Of a stretch of DNA of 64,000 nucleotides, positions 1-10,978 are shown in pieces. Positions within the stretch are counted from its first letter, which is position 1; the number at the start of each line of letters is the position of its first letter. The stretch lies in the NCBI GenBank assembly GCA_003133245.1, contig PKWM01000018.1:1-64000 (forward strand). Reading direction: 5' to 3'. Made by a program: the position numbers and the translations under genes. The notes beneath the pieces were generated by a model. It did no database searches and had not been told where the DNA came from. It saw nothing but the letters and a program-made list of their open reading frames with translations. The DNA is from Rhodoferax sp. (GTDB taxonomy: Bacteria; Pseudomonadota; Gammaproteobacteria; Burkholderiales; Burkholderiaceae_C).

Positions 1-184
1 CGTTCTCGAAGAGCAGGGCGCAGCGCTGCTCTTCGGCGACGCTCTGAAAATTAACCCGCCCCACGGCGGCGATTTCCCAGTCCTTGTCAACCGCCTTGGT
101 GATGCGCTTGAGTTTGCCGTTTTGTTCGAGCACTGCGAGGTACTCGCGCAAATCCGCGTAGGGTCGTTTACGAGCTTGTGTCAT
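1..184 (-). CDS. UbiD-family decarboxylase, N-terminal part (cut by window edge)
   Basis: Partial gene. The minus strand from an ATG at 184 reads MTQARKRPYADLREYLAVLE and stays open to position 1, about 61 codons. A ribosome binding site (AAGGAGA) lies 4-5 bases upstream. The DLREYLAVLEQNGKLKRI start, followed by an IAAVGR segment and a LLFEN segment, is typical of the N-terminal region of UbiD-family prenyl-FMN-dependent (de)carboxylases. The catalytic region lies outside the window. It is the last visible gene of the operon that begins with ubiX at 8875, and it follows the bicupin gene after 40 bases. The operon therefore carries two UbiD paralogues, which may act on successive or alternative carboxylic acids (inference). 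The family call rests on the N-terminus only. Confidence 0.72.
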   Translation of the reverse strand, partial: MTQARKRPYADLREYLAVLEQNGKLKRITKAVDKDWEIAAVGRVNFQSVAEEQRCALLFEN

Positions 185-224
185 CTATTCTCCTTTTGTT
201 GCAATAATAAAAATCAGTCAGATA

Positions 225-1310
225 TTACTTGAAAAACCCGGACATTTTCGCTGCAACGCCGTTCTTTCGAGTTGCTTCTTCATACAGCTGATTAATGCGG
301 GGTGATTGGTCTTCATACTCGATCTGGGCACCGCCTAATTTTATGCTGGTGGAGACTCCACCGAACAGAGATTTGCGCTTGCTTTCGGTGAAGGGATAAC
401 GCAAACTACCATAGGCCGTAGCCAGATAGCGCGCCGGTTTCGAGCCGGTATTGAAGTGTTGATGAAACATTTGATCCGGCGGGGCAAACACCGTGCCATG
501 CTTCCAGTCGACGCGATGAAAATCCTGTTCGCCTTCATACCATAGCAGTGAATATCCCGTGCCGGTTACGCACATCACATGGAAGTCGGCCGCATGGCGA
601 TGGCCCTTTTTATAGGTTCCGACCGGCATTTCAGAGATGTGCGCATGCATGGTTCCATCGGCCAGAATAAACATGATGTTCCCCCCGCCAGCCCCGCGGT
701 CACCCCAGGGTTTCAATTCAATGGCAGCCAGATCTGGAACAAAATTGGTTTCCCACATATGGTTGCCGGGGCGTACCGGGATGAAATCGCCTTCACCGCT
801 GAAGTACTTCGAACTGCCAATGCGTTCATCGAACTGCCAGCTATTGTTGAAAATGAATTTCTCGTTATGGAACATGTTCATGACCGCCGGCATATTGGTG
901 GTTGAAATCAGCAATGCCGACTCCAATCCGCTGCCGTTGAAATGCCTGTATTTGGTATTAAGCGGAATGGCGAACATGCTCTTTGGGCCCCACTCGAAAG
1001 TATGCTTGCGGCCATCAGCTACTTCAATCGTGGTACTACCTTGACCAGCCAGGACGTACACGACTTCTTCGTAAAGATGTTGCTGCGGTAAAGTCGAAGC
1101 AGTTGGCGAGATATCCAGCAAGAACATGTTCAGGAAATCGCCACGCCCTTTAAGGTGGACGGCCGCACCGTTAACGCCAAAACGGGCCCAAGGCTTGGTT
1201 TCTACTTTGAACAAATCAATCCCGAAATCCTCTGCAACCGGTATGCCCTCAGTTTTGAGCCATTCGAGATAGGAGTCGATCATGATTCTTGGCGCGTCAG
1301 TGTTGCTCAT
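225..1310 (-). CDS. bicupin protein (cupin-domain protein found next to EutA-like genes)
   Basis: 361 residues, ATG start with AAGGAA upstream. Two cupin beta-barrels are visible. The first, about residues 60-140, has H78 with E81/E82. The second, about residues 215-310, has an HRH motif at 237-239 and further histidines near 283-285, a plausible metal site. No signal peptide or membrane segment is seen. Proteins of this type are often named ethanolamine ammonia-lyase-activating protein by association, but nothing in the sequence shows that function. Its place between an EutA-like ATPase and a UbiD-type decarboxylase suggests a role in the same catabolic route, for example as a dioxygenase, isomerase or lyase on a carboxylic acid. 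That is inference, and the substrate is unknown. Confidence 0.7.
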   Translation of the reverse strand: MSNTDAPRIMIDSYLEWLKTEGIPVAEDFGIDLFKVETKPWARFGVNGAAVHLKGRGDFLNMFLLDISPTASTLPQQHLYEEVVYVLAGQGSTTIEVADGRKHTFEWGPKSMFAIPLNTKYRHFNGSGLESALLISTTNMPAVMNMFHNEKFIFNNSWQFDERIGSSKYFSGEGDFIPVRPGNHMWETNFVPDLAAIELKPWGDRGAGGGNIMFILADGTMHAHISEMPVGTYKKGHRHAADFHVMCVTGTGYSLLWYEGEQDFHRVDWKHGTVFAPPDQMFHQHFNTGSKPARYLATAYGSLRYPFTESKRKSLFGGVSTSIKLGGAQIEYEDQSPRINQLYEEATRKNGVAAKMSGFFK

Positions 1311-1370
1311 ATTTTGTTCCTTGATTAACTAATAATACGGAGATGAAATTCTAGGATGCTGCAAACGATG

Positions 1371-3068
1371 TTACAGATTCTGTTGGCCGGTTGAAAATAA
1401 CAATGATTTGATCACGACCGGCACCGCATTGCTGGGCTGGATTGCTTCACCGATATCCACGTAGTCAAAGGCGCGTAACTGGATACCGTCAATTGATACA
1501 ATTTTTTGGGGAAAATGAAGCTCATGTTCAATAATATGCCCGAGAGTTTTTCCGATATCGCCATCAACAATCAGAATTATTGTTGACCCGGCACCTGGCT
1601 CCGTGACCAAGGCGAGTGCAATGCCCTCTGCAAGATTGCGTAAACGAGAGTAATGGGGGTCACCACGCCATTTAAGCGCCAATGCAATTGGCTGCCCTTT
1701 GTGCAGGTGTGCGCGTGAGAGCACCAAACTGATTTCTTCTGCCACAGATTGAACTGAAAAGCTTTCATCCATCGAAAGCGTAGGTGCTAACACCGGAACA
1801 TTATGGACCGGCAATGCAGTTCCATCCGAAATATGAATGGTTCTTCCGCTTACCTGGACCGTAAACTGTGAAGCACCGATCACGGTAGCGCGGATTCCCT
1901 GTCCTGGATCCAACATTGGAACGGTGATACGGCCATCGAAGAACGCGCGGCGGATATTGTCGGCAAGCGGCTGGGCGATATCGCCGAATAGCCCGTTTTC
2001 GCGACGATAGATGTATTCTGAAACCCCTCCGGAGAATGTAATGAAATCGGCTTTCACTGGCTCCAGGAAAGGCGGTGTCAAATATAACTCTTGGGCGGTT
2101 CCGAGCACGCTCTTTTGTTGTATCAACGCAATGACCGCATTGGATAAAGCGTCGATCACACTATCAATATCGGCAGCATTGGCTTGTTCACCCAGCTGCA
2201 GTTTGATTCCCTGCGCCTTTGCCATCAAATGTGCCGAATCATCAATCCGAACCAGTCGTCCCTCCTCATCTTGAGCGATCAAACGACCGCCAACCGCGAT
2301 GGCGCAAGTTCCGAGTATTTCGCCATTTTTTATCAATGCCAGCTTTGTTGTCCCGCCGCCGATGTCTACATGAAGAACAGTCCGCGAAGTCTTGCGTGAA
2401 AGCGCCACCGCACCTGAGCCATTGGCTGCAAGAATGCATTCCAGATAGTGCCCGGCAGAGGCACAGACGAATTTTCCGGAGTCGGCAGCAAACAATTCGG
2501 CAATTGCCGAAGCGTTGCTTCTCTTGATTGCCTCGCCCGTCAGAATCACCGCACCGCTATCGATATCCGCTGCGGCAAGCCCGGATTCAAGATAGGCATC
2601 TTCAATGAAAACGCGAAGCCGGTCGGCGTCGATCGTGTTATCGGGCAGGAAAGGGGTAAGAAGAATTTGTGAGCGCCAGATTATTTCCCGGTCGATAACG
2701 ACAAACTGGCTCGACAGCATTTGGGTTTTACGTTGCAAATGCACCTTGGCAAACATCAGATGCGATGTTGAACTGCCAATATCAATCCCCACGGTTGTGA
2801 GTTTGATGTTGTCTATTTTCCAGATATATTCTGCAATTGCTCCTTTCTCGTCAATCGATATTTCGTGAATATGATCGTCTTCATCGCTGTCGTGCAGTTC
2901 CTTACGATTTAAACCTTCACATGAAAACCCGCTGGGTCCATCAACCGCACCAAGCGAATCACCACACTCGACCCATCCTGGGCGTGGTCGCGTAAAAGCT
3001 GCCTGGTTTGAAATGGTAAGTAGCTTGTTCTGTTGAATAGGGCTCATTCCGGAAAGCGCAAGCAGCAT
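1371..3068 (-). CDS. EutA-like reactivating-factor family ATPase (ASKHA fold)
   Basis: 565 residues. The phosphate-binding motif GIDIGSSTSH lies at about residues 94-103 and the second motif HVDIGGGTTK at about 233-242, both characteristic of the Hsp70/actin-like fold of EutA. EutA removes inactive cobalamin from ethanolamine ammonia-lyase. Here there is an N-terminal extension of about 90 residues, rich in Asp/His around residues 60-70, and the protein is roughly 100 residues longer than enterobacterial EutA. No eutBC genes occur in the window, so an ethanolamine role is not supported. The start ATG overlaps the stop of the upstream binding-protein gene as TAATG, indicating translational coupling. 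It may reactivate or chaperone another cofactor enzyme of this operon (inference). Confidence 0.75.
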   Translation of the reverse strand: MLLALSGMSPIQQNKLLTISNQAAFTRPRPGWVECGDSLGAVDGPSGFSCEGLNRKELHDSDEDDHIHEISIDEKGAIAEYIWKIDNIKLTTVGIDIGSSTSHLMFAKVHLQRKTQMLSSQFVVIDREIIWRSQILLTPFLPDNTIDADRLRVFIEDAYLESGLAAADIDSGAVILTGEAIKRSNASAIAELFAADSGKFVCASAGHYLECILAANGSGAVALSRKTSRTVLHVDIGGGTTKLALIKNGEILGTCAIAVGGRLIAQDEEGRLVRIDDSAHLMAKAQGIKLQLGEQANAADIDSVIDALSNAVIALIQQKSVLGTAQELYLTPPFLEPVKADFITFSGGVSEYIYRRENGLFGDIAQPLADNIRRAFFDGRITVPMLDPGQGIRATVIGASQFTVQVSGRTIHISDGTALPVHNVPVLAPTLSMDESFSVQSVAEEISLVLSRAHLHKGQPIALALKWRGDPHYSRLRNLAEGIALALVTEPGAGSTIILIVDGDIGKTLGHIIEHELHFPQKIVSIDGIQLRAFDYVDIGEAIQPSNAVPVVIKSLLFSTGQQNL

Positions 3069-4138
3069 TACTTTATCCCTTTGAGGAAAATTTCGTTAAA
3101 GGTCTGGGTCCATTTTTCGTTGTTATCCAGGAAAAATCCCGGGTCGATGAATTTGAGAGTTAACTTTTTAAGAGGTGAGGCGATCTTAACGCTCGTGGGG
3201 ACATAGTAGCGGTTGGCCAAAATTTGTTGGGCATCGCTCAGCATGAAGTCGTAAAACAGCATCGCGGCGTAGGGGTGGAGCGCATTTTTTAGCAAACCGA
3301 TGGTTCTGAACTGGGCAACGGTCGGGGGAATCAGAAACCAATCGATCGGTTCTCCCTTTTGCTTAAACTGAACAGGCTTGTTGCTATAGGTCGTCAAGGC
3401 CAACGGTACTTCTCCTGAGGCTACCAATTGAGCTAACAGGGTATGGCCTTTGCGCACTGACATGCCGTTGGTCTCGACAATGGTCTTAAAAAGTTTTGTT
3501 CCTTTTTCTTGCCCTAATTCTTGTATTACAGTAGCCAACCAATGTTGGTCCTCTGCTTCAATGCCCAAACGGCCTTTCCATTTTGGATCAAGCAAATCCT
3601 GATAAGTTTTTGGAAGCTCTTCTTTTTTAACTTTTTCTGTGTTGTAAGCCTGAACGAAGATATCGATCGTTGTCCCGACCCATTCCTTGTGCGCCGGAAT
3701 GGCCTGAGGCATTAAGTCGGCGAGGTAAGGGGATTTAACCTGTTGCAATAATTTTTCACGGTGCAATGCTTCCATTTCTGGTGCATTATTTTCAACTATA
3801 TCCACTTCGAATCGTCCGGCACGTTCTTCAGATACGACTCTTTGCAAAATATTTTCCGAACCGGAACGCCAGCTTTTTACTTTAATACCGTATTTTTTGG
3901 TAAAGGCGTCAATGACCGGCAACATGTCATCTGCTGTCATGGATCCATATATAGTCAACTCGCCTTCTTTTTTGGCGCCTTCCATGAGTCTGTGAAGACG
4001 ATTCTCACCCTGCAAAAGAGCAATTTCAGCTACTGCCGCCTCTGTTTTCTTGGATTGCGCAAATGCGGGATTAGCGCAAAGGAAAGTTATAGCTATTAGC
4101 AATAAAGCCAAACTGGATCTGACAGGTGAATTAGCCAC
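3068..4138 (-). CDS. periplasmic substrate-binding protein, ABC family 1 / iron(III)-type
   Basis: About 356 residues from the chosen GTG at 4138, which has AAAGG 7 bases upstream and places a normal signal peptide (hydrophobic LALLLIAITFLC, cleavage near AFA-QS) at the N-terminus. A longer version from TTG at 4195 is possible but has no visible ribosome site. The mature part has the layout of extracellular solute-binding family 1 proteins (KEGELTIYGS near the start, then a bilobed fold with PKWKGRLGIE in the middle). Such proteins bind ferric iron, or small anions and carboxylates, for an ABC transporter. No permease or ATPase gene lies next to it, so it either works with a distant transporter or acts as a periplasmic sensor. 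It is coupled to the EutA-like gene by TAATG and follows the CoA-transferase gene. The ligand could be the acid degraded by the operon (inference). Confidence 0.7.
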   Translation of the reverse strand: MANSPVRSSLALLLIAITFLCANPAFAQSKKTEAAVAEIALLQGENRLHRLMEGAKKEGELTIYGSMTADDMLPVIDAFTKKYGIKVKSWRSGSENILQRVVSEERAGRFEVDIVENNAPEMEALHREKLLQQVKSPYLADLMPQAIPAHKEWVGTTIDIFVQAYNTEKVKKEELPKTYQDLLDPKWKGRLGIEAEDQHWLATVIQELGQEKGTKLFKTIVETNGMSVRKGHTLLAQLVASGEVPLALTTYSNKPVQFKQKGEPIDWFLIPPTVAQFRTIGLLKNALHPYAAMLFYDFMLSDAQQILANRYYVPTSVKIASPLKKLTLKFIDPGFFLDNNEKWTQTFNEIFLKGIK

Positions 4139-4209
4139 TTTTTTACCTTTAGAAGCAAACGTTACATTGGATATTTGTTGTATCAGCCGCTCCAAGTTGG
4201 CACGCCAAC

Positions 4210-6618
4210 TCAGGCGAAGGCACCCTGCATTCGGTAAGCGTCAAATTGATTATCTGTCATGCCGAGAAACTCCTGAAACACGAGCGCATTGTGTTCGCCG
4301 ATGAGCGGCGCTGCGGCCATTACATCGCCTGGCGTATCAGACAGGTCAAAGGCAGAAAAGTAACAGCTCAGGTCGCCGATTGCCCCATGCAGGCGCCGCC
4401 GCCAGAGGCGCCGGTGTAACAACTGCGGGTCGCTAAACAGGTCGGCGATCGTATTCACCATGTGGGAATGAACGCGTGCCGACTGGAGTTTGGCGGCGGC
4501 TTCACCGCCAACTTGAGTCAGCGACCATTGGGTGATGATTTTGTCCAGTTCCAGGGCATTTGCCTGGCGTAGTTCCAAGGTTGCAAACCGGTTGTCAAGT
4601 GCCAGTTCAGGGCAGCCTAGGACCCCGGCGAAACGCTTAAACTCGTCGTTGGACCAGCAAGAAAGTGCCAGCCAGTGCCCATCGCGACATGGATAGGCAT
4701 CGTGCGGGGCAGCGTTACGGTCGCGGTTACATGAGCGTTCGGCAATGCCACCGTTGGTGTGGTAATCGAGCAAGGCACCGGCAACAAACAGCAGACCTGC
4801 TTCGTATTGCGCCAGATCTATCCATGCCCCTTGTCCGGTTCGCCGCTGCCGATCGAGTGCCGCCAGCACGGCAGATGCCCCCAGAGTTGAGGCGATGAAG
4901 TCGATGTAGGGTCCGTAAAGCAACATCGGCGGTCCGTCCGGGCTACCAGTCAGGCCGCAGAAGCCGGCCAGCGCCGAGAGTTGGGAGCCAAATCCAGGCG
5001 TTTGCGCACGTGGCCCGGTCTGCCCCATGTTGCAGCTGGAAATCATCACCACGTTCGGGTTGAGCTCGCGCGCGCTTTGATAGCCAAGGCCCAAGCGGGA
5101 CATTACCTCGGGCCGCATGTTTTCAATAACGATGTCGGACCAGCCAAGCAGCTTCTGTGCCAGTTCGATGCCGGAAGCAGCCTTGAGATCCAATGTCACC
5201 GCGTATTTGGAATCGTTAAAAATGGCAAAGCAACCGCTGCGATTTACCCCAGGTTTTCCGTCCTTGAACGGTGGGTATTCATTGCGGAAACCATCTGGGT
5301 GCAGGTGCGATTCGACGTGCACAACTGTCGCACCAAAGGCCGCCAGCATCTTGCCGATGTGCGGTCCGGCGGCGTAGGCGCCAAACTCCACCACTTTTAC
5401 CCCGGCCAGGGCTTGCGAAATTCCGCTCGTGGGAGGGGCAAGTCCTGAGGAAGTTTTTCCGCGGGGCGCATGGGCCCGGCTGCCGAACGCGCCCAGCAGC
5501 GCCTCAATATCGACCTCTTCGCCGGGAAAGTGGCGCAGCGGCGCGCGCACCCGATCGACAATGGCAAAACTACCACAGTAACGCTGACGCTCCCCGTCGG
5601 AGTCCGGCAAATCCTGCCAGAAACTGCGCGCCGTCAGTTGCGGGTCGCTGGCGATATCGGGCATGGTCGATACCGGATAGCCGAGCATTTCCCGTCGGCT
5701 GGCTTCTTCCAGAAACTCTCGCTTGACAATCTTCAAGAAAAAATCGGCGATCGGTCGTTCCAGCGCGTCCACCTCTTCCTGGGTGGCGATCTTCGGGTCG
5801 AAACGCTTCCAGTCGATCTGTTCGAGTGCACCAAGGTTCGCACCACGCTCGCGCATCCATGCGACCAACTGGGCGTTGGTGCGCCTGCCGGCCGGCCCGC
5901 CGTAGAGAACAAAGTTAAGGTAGCCGTCGGCACAGGGCCAGAAGGCGCGGTGGCGCGCGCCCTTGATCGAGCGCCCGGTGATGTATGCCCCGGCCCTGGT
6001 CGGAATAGTCTGTTCCATATCCCAGAATGCGGCTGCGTGCGAGGTGGCCAAAATCATGGCGGCTTGCGCCGAAACATCCACGTGTTGTCCGCCGCCTGAG
6101 GCTGTGCGGTGAAAGAGTGCCGTCATCGCGCCCACGGCCGCCTGTGCCCCGGCCCAGCAATGGGATTGCGGCACGCTGATGCGTAAAGGCGTGCCCTCTG
6201 GCTCGCCGGCCAGCGACATGGCGCCGCTCGCCGCAGTGACCTCGAGATCCGAAGCCAGCCAGTTCGCTCTCGGGCCGCTCGACCCGAAAGGTGTAATCGA
6301 AACATGAATCAGCTTTGGGTTGAGCAACTTGAGCCGTTCAACGCCGAGGTAGCGAGCACTAGGATCGCTGGGCTGCGCCGACTCGATCAGGACGTCGGTA
6401 CCGACGATCAACTGATCGAATTCCAATTGCCCGGCAACGGTTTCAAGGTCGAGCCACAACAAACGTTTGTTGACGTTGAAGGCCTGCCAGTCGGCGCCCC
6501 CGATGGCGGCCCCCGGCACCTCGACCTTAATCACGTCTGCCCCCAGATCAGCCAGCAAGCGACCGGCCAGCCAGCCGATCCGGTTGCTGATGTCGAGGAC
6601 GCGGTAGGTGCTGAGCAT
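4210..6618 (-). CDS. tandem-fused family III (CaiB/BaiF) CoA-transferase
   Basis: 802 residues from ATG at 6618, which has AGGAAAG upstream. An in-frame start at 6678 would overlap ubiD and is less likely. Two full CaiB-like domains are joined head to tail: domain 1 at about residues 1-380 and domain 2 at about 405-790, linked by a Pro/Gly/Ser-rich stretch. Each domain keeps the VD[VL] motif that carries the catalytic aspartate of formyl-CoA transferase-type enzymes: D181 in HVDVS and D601 in WIDLA. Each also has its own N-terminal Rossmann start (VLDIS..LAGRLLADLGADVIKVE and VVEFGAYAAGPHIGKMLA). Family III enzymes transfer CoA between carboxylates, and many act as homodimers with interlocked rings. 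A fused pair may therefore make an asymmetric pseudo-dimer. The gene lies directly downstream of ubiD, which suggests that the acid is activated to a CoA thioester before or after decarboxylation. The CoA donor and acceptor are unknown. Confidence 0.85.
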   Translation of the reverse strand: MLSTYRVLDISNRIGWLAGRLLADLGADVIKVEVPGAAIGGADWQAFNVNKRLLWLDLETVAGQLEFDQLIVGTDVLIESAQPSDPSARYLGVERLKLLNPKLIHVSITPFGSSGPRANWLASDLEVTAASGAMSLAGEPEGTPLRISVPQSHCWAGAQAAVGAMTALFHRTASGGGQHVDVSAQAAMILATSHAAAFWDMEQTIPTRAGAYITGRSIKGARHRAFWPCADGYLNFVLYGGPAGRRTNAQLVAWMRERGANLGALEQIDWKRFDPKIATQEEVDALERPIADFFLKIVKREFLEEASRREMLGYPVSTMPDIASDPQLTARSFWQDLPDSDGERQRYCGSFAIVDRVRAPLRHFPGEEVDIEALLGAFGSRAHAPRGKTSSGLAPPTSGISQALAGVKVVEFGAYAAGPHIGKMLAAFGATVVHVESHLHPDGFRNEYPPFKDGKPGVNRSGCFAIFNDSKYAVTLDLKAASGIELAQKLLGWSDIVIENMRPEVMSRLGLGYQSARELNPNVVMISSCNMGQTGPRAQTPGFGSQLSALAGFCGLTGSPDGPPMLLYGPYIDFIASTLGASAVLAALDRQRRTGQGAWIDLAQYEAGLLFVAGALLDYHTNGGIAERSCNRDRNAAPHDAYPCRDGHWLALSCWSNDEFKRFAGVLGCPELALDNRFATLELRQANALELDKIITQWSLTQVGGEAAAKLQSARVHSHMVNTIADLFSDPQLLHRRLWRRRLHGAIGDLSCYFSAFDLSDTPGDVMAAAPLIGEHNALVFQEFLGMTDNQFDAYRMQGAFA

Positions 6619-6644
6619 TCGCTTTCCTTTCGCGTTTAGCGCTG

Positions 6645-8225
6645 TTAGCGCCCGGTCCGTGCCAGCGAAAGAACCCAACCAGCCATGCGGCCCTTCATCT
6701 TCTCGATGTCCTTCTCTTCGAAGAAGTTTTCAGGTTTGACCAGATCGACGCCATAAACCGGACGGTGGAAGTCATTCTCGTAGCCGAATGGCACTGTTGC
6801 ATCAATGCCCATACCACCTTCGAACTGGGTGTTCGAAGCGGTCCATTGCTTGTCGCCCGATGTCATGCGCTCGGCCGGCATGAAGGTCTGGCCACGACCG
6901 CCCGGGATCGGATTGAGAATGTCTGTTCTTGGGTTCACGCGTGTCGTCAGGCACCACATGATGTCGTCCATCGAATAGATATCGACGTCCTCACTTACCG
7001 CAATCGCCAGGCGCATGCCTTGTGAGCAGGACAGGATCGCCGAGAGGAAGTTGCGCTGCCAGCCTTCTTCGATCTGGTTGCGCTTCTTCACCTGGATGAT
7101 GCAGCCGCCCCAGTCGGTCATGCAGTAGGGAATGTGGACGTTCTGCACGATACCCGGTTGCAGGCGCTCGCACAGGGCGTAGATGGCCGACTCGCGCACC
7201 GAGGTATCGATATTGGCATCGTCCGCGGTATGCACACCAAGCGGGAAAATGATCGGTTTGCTTTCGCGCTTGCGCATGGTAATTGCGGTGACATGGAAGG
7301 TTGGTGCCTTGTAGGCTTTGCCCATGTAACCGGCCCATTCCGGGTGGAAGTGAAAACGACCCTGAATATCGGCGGCCTCGGACTCGGCGGTTTCATAGCG
7401 CTTGTCACGTGGATGCAGGTAACCTTCGAGCACGTATTCGGCGTCGGCCAGTGTGTAGGCATCGATGGTCCGGCACTTGACCAGGCGGATCGGCGAGCCC
7501 TGGATGGCGCCGGCGATACCGATTTCATCGCAGCCCTTGGGCAGAATCGCATAATCGAAGCCGGAACCAGCGACGTAGGTGCAGGCCGGGGGAACGCCGA
7601 AGCACATGGTCAGAGGGATTGGCTTGTCGTCCTTGTAGTGTTCGGTCATCACCTGCCACATGTGCGAGCCCGGGGAGATCTGGAACGTGCCGGTGTCGAC
7701 CCAGCGGAAGTTCATGCGGTTATAGCCGATGTGGCTGCCGCCGTCGAAGTAGTCGCCGATGACGCAGGAGATGCCAGATCCGATAGTCATCTCGGTCTCC
7801 AGCGGCGTATGGCGGATGGCGGTCAGCCACTTGTTGACGTCGATGTTTTCGGTGATGACATCCTCTTGAACCGGCGCATCTTTTTGCTCGATGATCACCG
7901 ACTTGAGCGGATGATCAATGGCGCGAGCTACCTTCTTGACGCGGTCGAGCGAATCTTTCCAATCGAACATGTCCTCGACGACGCGGATGTCACCGAACAG
8001 ATTGGTAATGGCGCGGGCGTGCGGCATGCCCTTGACGTTGTTGAATAACATCGGCAGGCTACCGTCAAAAATCTTCTGCAGGCCCGTGATCTCAAGGTCA
8101 GGATTGACCTCTTTGTCGGTTTCAACCAGGTAGCCTTTTTCCCGAAACCAATTCAGTGTCGAGCGCAAGCTCGTAACATCCTTGACACCAGTTCCGGCTA
8201 TTGCCTTGTTCGTTTTGTCAGTCAT
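6645..8225 (-). CDS. UbiD-family prenyl-FMN-dependent decarboxylase
   Basis: 526 residues, ATG start with a GGAGAA-type site upstream. UbiD enzymes use prenylated FMN to (de)carboxylate aromatic or alpha,beta-unsaturated acids. The sequence holds the expected prFMN/active-site elements: the region around R170 in IGYNRMNF and the paired glutamates E263/E267 in DAEYVLEGYL. The C-terminal third contains the conserved region around PRTDI and GMGIDAT. It sits 53 bases downstream of a ubiX gene that would make the cofactor and 26 bases upstream of a fused CoA-transferase. Such a trio is reminiscent of anaerobic phthalate-type pathways (CoA-transferase plus UbiD-like acyl-CoA decarboxylase). The similarity is of architecture only, and the substrate cannot be read from the sequence. 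Confidence 0.88.
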   Translation of the reverse strand: MTDKTNKAIAGTGVKDVTSLRSTLNWFREKGYLVETDKEVNPDLEITGLQKIFDGSLPMLFNNVKGMPHARAITNLFGDIRVVEDMFDWKDSLDRVKKVARAIDHPLKSVIIEQKDAPVQEDVITENIDVNKWLTAIRHTPLETEMTIGSGISCVIGDYFDGGSHIGYNRMNFRWVDTGTFQISPGSHMWQVMTEHYKDDKPIPLTMCFGVPPACTYVAGSGFDYAILPKGCDEIGIAGAIQGSPIRLVKCRTIDAYTLADAEYVLEGYLHPRDKRYETAESEAADIQGRFHFHPEWAGYMGKAYKAPTFHVTAITMRKRESKPIIFPLGVHTADDANIDTSVRESAIYALCERLQPGIVQNVHIPYCMTDWGGCIIQVKKRNQIEEGWQRNFLSAILSCSQGMRLAIAVSEDVDIYSMDDIMWCLTTRVNPRTDILNPIPGGRGQTFMPAERMTSGDKQWTASNTQFEGGMGIDATVPFGYENDFHRPVYGVDLVKPENFFEEKDIEKMKGRMAGWVLSLARTGR

Positions 8226-8278
8226 TGCATTTTCTCCTTCAGTTAAGTTAAGTTGAGTTGAATATTTGAGGTGAGTTA

Positions 8279-8875
8279 TTACGTTTGCGCCTGATTAGGG
8301 GCGTCTTGCTTTCCCATCTGCCCAGTCCAACGCTGCGCAAATTCGGCTGGAATTCCGAATTGATCGAGAATTCGAGCCACCACGTGATCGATCATGTCGT
8401 CAAGCGATGTCGGGCGGTTGTAGAAGGCCGGCATCGGCGGCATGATCGTCACGCCCATACGAGACATTTTGAGCATGTTTTCCAGATGCACGTCACTGAG
8501 CGGCATTTCTCGGGTTACCAGCACCAGTTTTCGCCGCTCCTTGAGAATCACATCGGCTGCCCGGTGGATCAAATGATCGCCCGTACCATGGGCAATTGCC
8601 GCCAAACTGCGCATTGAGCACGGCGCGACAACCATCCCTTCGGTGACAAATGACCCGGAGGAGATTGTCGCCCCCATATTTCCTTCAGAATGATCCACCG
8701 TTGCCAAGGCCCGAACCTGTTTCGCGGTATAGGTGGTTTCGTGTTCGATGGTCTGGATCGCCCACTTGCTGAGAACTAGGTGGGTTTGCACCTCTGTGTT
8801 CTTCAACGCCTCAAGCAAACGGATGCCAAAAATTGCACCTGTAGCGCCAGTAATGCCGACAATTAGCCGTTTCAA
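8279..8875 (-). CDS. ubiX: UbiX-type flavin prenyltransferase
   Basis: 198 residues starting at TTG 8875, with AGGAGAG 5 bases upstream. UbiX attaches a dimethylallyl group to FMN to make the prenyl-FMN cofactor of UbiD enzymes. Visible family motifs are GITGATGAIFG at the N-terminus, GSFVTEGMVVAPCSM with the following RSLAAIAHGTGD around the middle, the KERRKLVLVTRE strand, and FYNRP near the C-terminus. The length is normal. It is the first gene of the operon that carries one complete and one partial UbiD gene, so it likely serves these dedicated enzymes rather than, or as well as, ubiquinone synthesis. Many genomes carry such a second ubiX (general knowledge). The symbol denotes the family; a pad1/dedicated-paralogue name would be equally valid. 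Confidence 0.88.
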   Translation of the reverse strand: MKRLIVGITGATGAIFGIRLLEALKNTEVQTHLVLSKWAIQTIEHETTYTAKQVRALATVDHSEGNMGATISSGSFVTEGMVVAPCSMRSLAAIAHGTGDHLIHRAADVILKERRKLVLVTREMPLSDVHLENMLKMSRMGVTIMPPMPAFYNRPTSLDDMIDHVVARILDQFGIPAEFAQRWTGQMGKQDAPNQAQT

Positions 8876-9296: not shown

Positions 9297-9776
9297 CTAT
9301 TTTCGCTTGTACTTTCCAATGAGCTGGGTTTGATCAAGGATGTGCCCTTGCATCGCTGCTTTGACCTCCAGCTTGGTCGCACCAGCCTCTAAGGCAAGCA
9401 TGCGGTCGAGGGCGTAAAGCGCAAAGACGTAGCGGTGTTCGGATGGCTCATACTGCGGCGGCGGACACGGGCCGGTATAGACATTTTTGCCAGCCCCGTT
9501 GGTACCCGCGATGCCAACCGATCCGCCCTCTGGAATTTCACGGGTACTGGCCGGGATGTTGAAGAGGGTCCAATGGTCGAACACACCGTCGGGTCGCAAT
9601 TGCTTGGGAACGTCGGGGTCATCCATGATGAGCGCGAGCGATTTTGTCGCTGCGGGCACGCCCGCAAAGGTGAGCGCCGGGCTCAAGCTTCGATCTCCAT
9701 CGCAGGTGTACTTGGACGGAATGGGGCCATTTGCCGTAAATGCGAGGCTGGCAAGTATCAATGTTGAAGTGACCAT
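9297..9776 (-). CDS. YbhB/YbcL-family PEBP protein (Raf kinase inhibitor-like)
   Basis: 159 residues. The family pattern is clear: IPSKYTCDG near the N-terminus, SPALTFAGVPAATKSLAL, the DDPDVP ligand-site motif at about residues 52-57, FDHWTLFNIP, then GPCPPP and HRYVFALYALD. The bacterial family (YbhB, YbcL) has a phosphatidylethanolamine-binding-protein fold with a small anion-binding pocket, and its physiological role is poorly known. The N-terminus is mildly hydrophobic but aligns with the cytoplasmic family start, so no cleaved signal peptide is assumed. It is a single gene, convergent with nothing and divergent from tsaD. Next to it is a decayed copy of the same family. Confidence 0.85.
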   Translation of the reverse strand: MVTSTLILASLAFTANGPIPSKYTCDGDRSLSPALTFAGVPAATKSLALIMDDPDVPKQLRPDGVFDHWTLFNIPASTREIPEGGSVGIAGTNGAGKNVYTGPCPPPQYEPSEHRYVFALYALDRMLALEAGATKLEVKAAMQGHILDQTQLIGKYKRK

Positions 9777-9913
9777 GATGATTGATGTGGGTTAAAGACT
9801 TGTTTCACTATAGCCGCTTTCAGTTCTATTCATTTCCGGAAGACGACTCTATGAAGAACTTGCATCATGCTGTCACGCTGCTGGTCGGCAGCATCGCCTA
9901 AACTCTGATCTCT

Positions 9914-10978
9914 ATGGTAAAAAATTTGCAGGTTCTGGGGATTGAATCCTCTTGTGACGAAACCGGTGTGGCGCTGGTGGAGGTGCGCGGTACCGCGTTG
10001 CCGGTGCTGCTCGCTCACGCCTTGCACAGCCAGATCGTGATGCACCAGGCCTACGGCGGTGTTGTGCCGGAGCTGGCCAGTCGTGACCATATTCGCCGGG
10101 TGCTGCCGCTGACAGAACAAGTGCTGCTCGAATCCAAACGAAGTCTGACTGACATCGATGTGGTGGCCTTTACCCGCGGTCCGGGGTTGGCGGGTGCCTT
10201 GCTGGTCGGCGCTGGCGTGGCCTGCGCGCTGGGGGCTGCGCTGGCCAAGCCGGTGCTGGGGGTGCATCACCTCGAAGGCCATTTGTTGTCGCCTTTTTTG
10301 AGTGTTGACCCGCCCGAATTTCCGTTTGTGGCGCTGCTGGTTTCAGGCGGTCACACGCAACTGATGCGGGTCGATGGAGTGAGTCGCTACACATTGCTGG
10401 GCGAAACCATTGACGACGCTGCGGGCGAGGCGTTTGACAAGTCGGCCAAGCTATTAGGCCTGGTTTACCCGGGTGGGCCAGCGCTGGCCCAGTTGGCTGA
10501 ACAGGGCAATGCCCAGGCCTTCAAGTTGCCGCGCCCCCTGCTGCACAGCGGCAACCTGGATTTTTCATTTGCCGGTTTAAAAACGGCAGTGCTGGTGCAG
10601 GCCAAAAAACTGGCGCTGGCGCAGGGCAGCGCGGTCGAGGCGCTGCCTGTAGAGGTGCTGGCGGATCTGGCCGCCTCCACGCAAGCAGCCATCGTCGAAG
10701 TACTGGTTAAAAAGTCGCTTGCCGCGCTAACTCAAACCGGTTTGCGCCGACTGGTGGTAGCTGGTGGTGTCGGTGCCAACCGCAGCTTGCGCCAGCAACT
10801 CAATGCCGCTTGTGCCGCACGTCAAGTACGGGTGCATTATCCCGAGTTGCATCTGTGTACCGACAACGGTGCCATGATTGCCATGGCAGCGGCCATGCGA
10901 CTCCAGGCCGGCGTGCAAAGCGCCAGCACGGTTTACGCTTTTGACGTCAAACCACGCTGGCCGATGGATCTGCTTTAG
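9914..10978 (+). CDS. tsaD: tRNA N6-adenosine threonylcarbamoyltransferase TsaD
   Basis: 354 residues with the complete Kae1/Qri7/TsaD pattern: [10 protein letters not shown] at residues 8-17, the metal-binding HHLEGH (two histidines) at about 115-120, SGGHTQLM at about 142, [10 protein letters not shown] at about 175, and TDNGAMIA near the C-terminus with the third metal ligand. TsaD transfers the threonylcarbamoyl group from the TsaC product to A37 of ANN-reading tRNAs, together with TsaB and TsaE. These partners are not in the window. It is a single transcription unit, divergent from the PEBP gene and convergent with the RquA-like gene. Confidence 0.95.

What the first reader, a model, noticed from the sequence alone, without database searches (positions are those of the whole stretch)
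1..8875. Candidate new decarboxylation system: ubiX - ubiD - fused CoA-transferase - binding protein - EutA-like ATPase - bicupin - second ubiD
Seven genes on one strand with gaps of at most about 70 bases and one TAATG overlap. The combination joins a prenyl-FMN cofactor maker, two UbiD-type decarboxylases, a double CoA-transferase, a secreted binding protein and an EutA-like ATPase without ethanolamine ammonia-lyase. Known anaerobic phthalate-type routes pair a CoA-transferase with a UbiD-like decarboxylase and a UbiX, but not, to my knowledge, with EutA-like and bicupin partners. Inference: the operon takes up an unknown di- or aromatic carboxylic acid, activates it with CoA and decarboxylates it, with the ATPase keeping one enzyme active.
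Basis: partly seen in the sequence, partly recalled or inferred. Interest (0 to 1): 0.72.

Follow-up and report, generated by a model that had tools for sequence, protein, structure and literature searches.

The report
ATPase-cupin pair beside phthalate genes
Half of this gene cluster is a known route for breaking down phthalate without oxygen; the other half is an undescribed but widely conserved two-gene unit, a probable metal enzyme of the cupin fold with its own ATP-driven partner protein, which may show that repair ATPases also serve enzymes that do not use vitamin B12.

Summary
The seven genes are there, but they are two modules. UbiX, UbiD1 and the double CoA-transferase are the known anaerobic phthalate module: UbiD1 is a phthaloyl-CoA decarboxylase (89% identical to Aromatoleum aromaticum EbN1, same gene order); the CoA-transferase is a fusion of two subunits. 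The second UbiD is cut off by the contig end.

The unexpected part is the EutA-like ATPase with the bicupin. In 80 EutA-like loci a bicupin lies within 1.5 kb in 76; a UbiD is in the held stretch in only 8. In whole-genome samples the bicupin occurs in exactly the genomes with this EutA type: 4 of 300 in the window's order, 7 of 347 in a second order. The four lack EutB. These ATPases form a clade apart from ethanolamine reactivases; three ATPase subtypes match three bicupin clades. 73 of 86 carry an N-terminal His motif that 15 of 15 ethanolamine-type proteins lack. Neighbours include many aromatic-acid genes; 17 of 80 loci hold phthalate dioxygenase-like or phthaloyl-CoA decarboxylase genes.

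Best reading: an ATP-driven reactivase or metal chaperone dedicated to a gentisate-dioxygenase-like bicupin. The pairing is well supported; mechanism and substrate are inferred.

The parts
8279..8875 (-). UbiX flavin prenyltransferase (makes prenyl-FMN)
   Evidence: NCBIfam UbiX subfamily models over their cut-offs; 82.5% to EbN1 RS22155
6645..8225 (-). UbiD1 = phthaloyl-CoA decarboxylase
   Evidence: about 1126 bits to 8pmk/8oz5; 89.4% to EbN1 plasmid 2
4210..6678 (-). Fused two-subunit type III CoA-transferase (succinyl-CoA:phthalate CoA-transferase type); likely start 6618
   Evidence: two PF02515 stretches; halves 75.7% and 75.2% to EbN1 RS22145 and RS22140
3068..4195 (-). Secreted ABC-type substrate-binding protein
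   Evidence: SBP_bac_8 and related Pfam models; an SBP on the same strand within 2 kb of the EutA-like gene in 10 of 80 loci
1371..3068 (-). EutA-like actin/Hsp70-fold ATPase, type I; likely CTG start at 2897, giving N-terminal LHDSDEDDHIHE
   Evidence: PF06277 392 bits; clade apart from ethanolamine reactivases; start; N-terminal His motif
225..1310 (-). Bicupin, candidate metal-dependent dioxygenase; partner of the EutA-like ATPase
   Evidence: Cupin_2/Cupin_1; model pLDDT 94.6; fold nearest gentisate and salicylate dioxygenases, oxalate decarboxylase close behind; His237/239/283 invariant in 52 of 52
1..184 (-). First 61 codons of a second UbiD, cut by the contig end
   Evidence: sequence; best match 38% over 52 aa to a UbiD of L077, 45% over 33 aa to the own UbiD on contig C50

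Best explanation
Two modules share one strand and probably one transcript. Module 1 (UbiX, UbiD1, fused CoA-transferase) turns phthalate into phthaloyl-CoA and then benzoyl-CoA; this is the known anaerobic route (shown by homology and gene order). Module 2 (EutA-like ATPase plus bicupin, often with a binding protein) is an undescribed, widespread unit. That the two proteins form a functional pair is supported by adjacency, genome co-occurrence and matched subtypes. Inferred: the bicupin is a metal-dependent oxygenase of an aromatic carboxylic acid, its metal held by the invariant His237/His239/His283 of its second cupin barrel. Inferred: the EutA-like protein uses ATP to re-open the bicupin and renew its damaged or mis-metallated centre, as EutA and diol-dehydratase reactivases eject damaged cobalamin (recalled), with the His motif of its N-terminus handling metal. 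Inferred, weakest: because the pair sits beside both aerobic (dioxygenase) and anaerobic (CoA) phthalate genes, its substrate is upstream of phthalate, for example a bicyclic hydroxy-acid whose ring cleavage leads to phthalate, as with the gentisate-type 1-hydroxy-2-naphthoate dioxygenases (recalled).
Confidence: 0.55

Rival explanations
1. The EutA-like protein and the bicupin are two subunits of one ATP-consuming enzyme. The ATPase activates the substrate or drives a hard step and the bicupin finishes it, in the manner of acetone-carboxylase-type enzymes, which are recalled to contain a related ATPase fold.
Against: Up to four bicupins per EutA-like gene (L058) fits a shared helper better. 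The nearest curated models are reactivating factors.
Confidence: 0.2
2. A regulatory or sensing pair: the bicupin binds an aromatic acid or a metal and the ATPase relays the state; neither is catalytic.
For: Binding-protein genes are frequent neighbours (SBP in 17 and Bug type in 18 of 80 loci).
Against: Invariant metal-ligand-like His and a fold closest to ring-cleaving dioxygenases suggest catalysis.
Confidence: 0.1
3. One reading: one new decarboxylation system in which the ATPase serves UbiD or the CoA-transferase.
For: A UbiD is near 8 of 80 EutA-like genes; a phthaloyl-CoA decarboxylase with a fused CoA-transferase near the pair also occurs in L053 and L116.
Against: 72 of 80 loci show no UbiD in the stretch held; the EbN1 plasmid with the phthalate cluster has no EutA-like or bicupin hit (the EbN1 chromosome was not searched); the nearest relative L057 has the pair without UbiD in 20 kb.
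Confidence: 0.04
4. An ordinary EutA that reactivates ethanolamine ammonia-lyase.
For: PF06277 match of 392 bits.
Against: No EutB in the genome; below every NCBIfam EutA equivalog cut-off listed (339 bits against 598 at best); outside the clades of EutA proteins that sit beside EutB.
Confidence: 0.01

Closest known systems
Anaerobic phthalate cluster of Aromatoleum aromaticum EbN1 plasmid 2 (UbiX - phthaloyl-CoA decarboxylase - two CoA-transferases)
   Same: Same enzymes in the same order at 82%, 89% and 75-76% identity
   Different: Window: the two CoA-transferase genes are fused, and a binding protein, EutA-like ATPase and bicupin follow; neither of the last two is found on the EbN1 plasmid
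EutA, ethanolamine ammonia-lyase reactivating factor (PF06277)
   Same: Same protein family and predicted actin-like ATPase core with its nucleotide-site residues
   Different: Separate clade, mostly no EutB in the genome, extra N-terminal segment often with a His motif, bicupin beside it in 76 of 80 loci
Gentisate and salicylate 1,2-dioxygenases (bicupins)
   Different: 10-15% identity; no curated model reaches its cut-off; the invariant His triad is in the C-terminal barrel, whereas salicylate dioxygenase is recalled to bind iron in the N-terminal one; dedicated ATPase partner
EutQ cupin of the ethanolamine operon (PMC3483176, passages read)
   Same: A cupin encoded in an operon with an EutA
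   Different: Single barrel without metal-binding His according to that paper; the partner here is a two-barrel protein with invariant His

Membership tests
Anaerobic phthalate degradation module | UbiD of the phthaloyl-CoA decarboxylase kind | tested here: met
   8pmk and 8oz5 at about 1126 bits; 89.4% to EbN1
Anaerobic phthalate degradation module | UbiX next to it | tested here: met
   window 8279-8875
Anaerobic phthalate degradation module | Two-subunit succinyl-CoA:phthalate CoA-transferase | tested here: met
   homologues of both subunits present, as one fused gene; activity not tested
Anaerobic phthalate degradation module | Downstream benzoyl-CoA reductase | tested here: inconclusive
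   a BcrAD-family pair at C18:105175-106749; that family also holds other activators
EutA reactivating factor of ethanolamine ammonia-lyase | PF06277 sequence family | tested here: met
   392 bits, cut-off 27
EutA reactivating factor of ethanolamine ammonia-lyase | EutB present in the genome | tested here: not met
   no PF06751 match in G000
EutA reactivating factor of ethanolamine ammonia-lyase | Curated equivalog score | tested here: not met
   best 339 bits against a cut-off of 598
EutA reactivating factor of ethanolamine ammonia-lyase | Within the clades of EutB-linked EutA | tested here: not met
   49 bicupin-type rows form one side of a branch, SH-aLRT 95.9 (quick search, no bootstrap)
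ASKHA reactivases (working mode) | Conserved nucleotide-binding residues | tested here: met
   D66, G68, D205, G207-T210, G317-G318 invariant in 50 of 50 (motif assignment recalled)
ASKHA reactivases (working mode) | ATP-dependent reactivation of the partner | not testable with these tools
   needs purified proteins
Gentisate/salicylate-type bicupin dioxygenases | Bicupin fold | tested here: met
Gentisate/salicylate-type bicupin dioxygenases | Curated sequence model | tested here: not met
   MabB model 30.7 bits against 650; TIGR02272 matched weakly by 6 of 52
Gentisate/salicylate-type bicupin dioxygenases | Three-His metal site | tested here: inconclusive
   three His invariant, but in the C-terminal barrel; metal not shown
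Gentisate/salicylate-type bicupin dioxygenases | Ring cleavage with oxygen | not testable with these tools
   no assay

The most novel reading that the evidence does not exclude
A new kind of enzyme-care system: an actin-fold ATPase of the EutA family dedicated to a non-B12 metalloenzyme. It renews the metal centre of a ring-cleaving bicupin, with a His-rich N-terminus passing metal; three ATPase-bicupin subtypes coexist and evolve in step, and the unit feeds aromatic acids into phthalate catabolism with or without oxygen.
Probability: 0.3. Interest if true: 0.88.

Novelty: new variant of a known kind. Interest (0 to 1): 0.7.

Why it matters
Reactivases of the EutA kind are known (recalled) for B12 enzymes only. 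A clade of them, named ethanolamine reactivating factors where annotation was seen, although 24 of the 26 genomes tested that carry them lack EutB (4 of 4, 20 of 22), would instead serve an uncharacterised cupin protein in aromatic-acid breakdown. If so, many annotations need changing, a new principle (ATP-driven repair of a non-haem metal centre) becomes testable with two small proteins, and an unexplained part of many aromatic-acid gene clusters gets a candidate function.

Tried and rejected
Considered and dropped: UbiD as the partner of the ATPase (8 of 80 loci). Ordinary Eut operon (no EutB). A natural EutA-bicupin fusion gene: no called EutA gene over 650 aa or bicupin gene over 480 aa (one search printed none). 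The TAATG overlap as a real start. No DdrA/GdrA-type reactivase appears among the rows shown for the EutA-like model; this shows nothing, since only Foldseek's own candidates were aligned. The Python box holds no model coordinates, so the geometry of the His triad was not measured. A complex of the two proteins could not be modelled. A search of the own genome for the oxygenase domain LigXa_C found none, but its control rang nowhere, so absence is not shown.

Literature: EutA with UbiD and decarboxylase 0 papers; EutA with cupin 4 papers: passages read in two, one on EutQ and one on an ectoine gene also called eutA, the other two seen as listings only; 'reactivating factor EutA' with dioxygenase 0; EutA with phthalate 0; gentisate, dioxygenase and 'reactivating factor' 0; bicupin, aromatic, gene cluster and ring cleavage 2, listing only; reactivase, dioxygenase and cupin 0; 'ethanolamine ammonia-lyase reactivating' with aromatic 0; phthalate dioxygenase, cupin and gene cluster 1, listing only; phthaloyl-CoA decarboxylase with gene cluster 5, passages read in PMC13040137 and PMC12016498, three as listings. 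The library is open-access only, so this does not show that nothing is in print.

Related genomes are not independent; Fisher values (3.0e-9 and 8.8e-15) and the Mantel test are descriptive. That, drew the same genomes is judged from the shared handles. In the EutA tree (64 rows; two hits, L157 and L162, were left out as a duplicate and a fragment) EutB adjacency was seen for L008 and L013-L016 and for L179-L181; L131-L135, L182 and L183 were labelled ethanolamine-type from sequence alone. In the bicupin tree (39 rows) the own C42 bicupin at 107 kb and the G293 bicupin on contig C89 were assigned to type III by elimination, since their EutA genes lie 6.8 kb away or on another contig; L130 was labelled type I although its EutA branches outside the three types; G143 C57 had no label; the tool warned of long branches for L130 and L149. 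Gene calls came from a home-made ORF picker, on which the pair gaps, the start-codon counts and the neighbour clusters rest; the adjacency counts used tblastn and HMM hits.
Full report
OBSERVATION. The window begins at the end of contig C22 of its assembly (2.94 Mb in 52 contigs, 98.6% complete), so the second UbiD is only its first 61 codons. The claimed TAATG start of the EutA gene is doubtful: against the nearest relative, L057, the first 57 codons differ evenly over codon positions (22/16/16) with 25 of 57 residues identical, while the remaining 508 codons differ 43/23/131 with 450 identical. Among EutA-like gene calls the codon before the first His-Asp/Glu is ATG in 40, GTG in 14, CTG in 3 and TTG in 3 of 62 (starts picked by my own caller, which favours ATG/GTG/TTG); in the window it is CTG at 2897.

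THE DECARBOXYLATION HALF IS KNOWN. UbiD1 matches two solved phthaloyl-CoA decarboxylases at about 1126 bits; the next solved relatives score 148 bits and less. It is 89.4% identical to a gene on Aromatoleum aromaticum EbN1 plasmid 2, where the order is UbiX, UbiD, CoA-transferase, CoA-transferase. The halves of the window's CoA-transferase are 75.7% and 75.2% identical to those two genes, and UbiX is 82.5%. A review (PMC13040137, passages read) states that denitrifiers such as EbN1 activate phthalate with a succinyl-CoA-dependent transferase and decarboxylate it with a UbiD-like enzyme, and that UbiX and UbiD genes are in all known clusters. The own genome has a BcrAD-family pair that could serve benzoyl-CoA reduction and three heme-copper-oxidase-family matches, consistent with life with and without oxygen. 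The fusion of the two transferase genes also occurs in L053 (799 aa) and L116 (834 aa), while L077 keeps two genes.

THE CONSERVED UNIT IS ATPASE PLUS BICUPIN. The own genome holds three strong EutA-like genes and three bicupins. A bicupin lies within 1.5 kb of the EutA-like gene in 76 of 80. Of the four exceptions, L055 and L126 are cut at a contig end and L106 and L109 (SAR202) have none in about 20 kb. Pairs occur in both orders, with gaps of -29 to 219 nt (81 neighbouring pairs), and some are divergent (G749, G863, G874, G977). By contrast a UbiD is in the held stretch of 8 of 80, UbiX of 2 and the CoA-transferase of 4.

CO-OCCURRENCE. In 300 genomes of the window's order, 9 have a full-length EutA-family protein (the other matches are weak, E 7e-9 or worse). 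Five of these (G297, G157, G118, G254, G075) have EutB and four (G000, G143, G180, G293) do not. The bicupin profile hits exactly those four and none of the other 296 at E <= 1e-20. In 347 genomes of the order of G670 (a Phyllobacterium), EutA is found in 8 and the bicupin in 7, the same genomes except G929, whose EutA falls with the divergent EutB-linked group in the tree (same place as hit L135; EutB was not tested there). Of 22 genomes behind 24 chosen loci, 20 lack EutB; the two that have it are those of L068 and L128.

CO-EVOLUTION. A tree of 64 EutA-family rows puts the 49 bicupin-type ones on one side of a branch (SH-aLRT 95.9), apart from 10 ordinary and 5 divergent EutA rows. Inside it, three proteobacterial types recur, two or three of them in the same genomes: I with N-terminus MHDxDxxHxH, II with GGRIFFS and no His motif, III with a long His-rich N-terminus. 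The bicupins sort into three groups that match the type of their partner with the least possible number of changes (39 rows; two assignments by elimination, L130 labelled type I although its EutA lies outside the three types). Distances of 73 neighbouring pairs correlate at r 0.73, 0 of 2000 permutations as high. The match is looser in Chloroflexota: in L114 and L124 two EutA-like proteins 0.60 apart sit beside bicupins only 0.38 and 0.32 apart.

CONTEXT. Clustering the neighbours shows many aromatic-acid genes. The Rieske oxygenase of L094 scores 682 bits to 7fjl/7v25/7v28 (recalled to be Comamonas phthalate dioxygenase; labelled only Rieske protein in the call) and 236 to a putative phthalate 4,5-dioxygenase. 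The reductase of L113 scores 398 bits to phthalate dioxygenase reductase 2pia. One member of a protein family present in 29 loci scores 182 bits to 4,5-dihydroxyphthalate decarboxylase. Oxygenases at least 60% identical to that of L094, itself included, occur in 14 of 80 loci, many of them related Hyphomicrobiales, and phthaloyl-CoA decarboxylase in 3 of 80. The remaining 63 show neither at that threshold, so phthalate is one theme among several (TPP enzymes, tripartite tricarboxylate transporters, FAH, aldolases).

INTERPRETATION. Shown: a known phthalate module next to a near-obligate ATPase-bicupin pair that has no link with ethanolamine ammonia-lyase in most genomes tested. Inferred: the ATPase keeps the bicupin active by renewing its centre; the His motif of the N-terminus and the invariant His triad point at metal. 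One EutA-like gene beside up to four tandem bicupins (L058) fits a helper better than a fixed subunit. Since the pair sits beside oxygen-dependent and oxygen-independent phthalate genes alike, a substrate upstream of phthalate is the simplest common ground, but this is the weakest step. The compositional break inside the run and the presence of the pair without UbiD in L057 suggest, without proving, that the two modules were brought together from different sources; the same three genes are also below their locus mean in L057 (0.51-0.55 against 0.595) but near it in L053 and L113. Phthaloyl-CoA decarboxylase beside the pair in Sterolibacterium (L053, L054) and in a Chloroflexota MAG (L116, on the same strand with the fused transferase) shows that the meeting has happened more than once, or was passed on.

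VERDICT. The EutA-like plus bicupin pair it pointed at is real, widespread and, in the papers searched, undescribed.

Noticed in passing
L066, L068, L069, L072-L074, L076, L078, L085, L086, L093, L094, L117: A nicotinate-nucleotide diphosphorylase (NadC) gene lies in the same locus in 13 of 80 loci. Phthalate resembles quinolinate, the NadC substrate (recalled), so an extra or shielded NadC could protect phthalate degraders; whether it is an extra copy was not tested.
   Followed up: no
L040:8796-9365 and 9378-9935 (own contig C42): Two adjacent single-cupin genes match the C-terminal half (positions 215-291) and the N-terminal half (59-140) of the bicupin profile: perhaps a split version of the bicupin, beside a binding protein and near two EutA-like genes.
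   Followed up: partly
L058:5156-9914; L062; L063; L065: Two to four tandem bicupin paralogues lie beside one EutA-like gene in alphaproteobacterial MAGs.
   Followed up: partly
window 2895-2897 and L057: The EutA-like gene appears to start with CTG at the conserved Met-His-Asp position in the window and in its nearest relative.
   Followed up: partly
L040:10938-12398 (own C42:95 kb): A UbiD of another subfamily sits between two EutA-like genes, next to a Bug-type binding protein; UbiDs 46-49% identical to it lie directly before an EutA-like gene in L053, L054 and L077.
   Followed up: partly
G143 contig C57:107272-108366: A divergent bicupin (330 bits) with no EutA-like gene listed on the same contig; it has a long branch in the tree.
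   Followed up: no
L140:1-457 (EbN1 plasmid 2): A second UbiD gene on EbN1 plasmid 2, seen only in part, is 94.7% identical to the window's UbiD1 over 151 residues: probably a duplicate phthaloyl-CoA decarboxylase.
   Followed up: no
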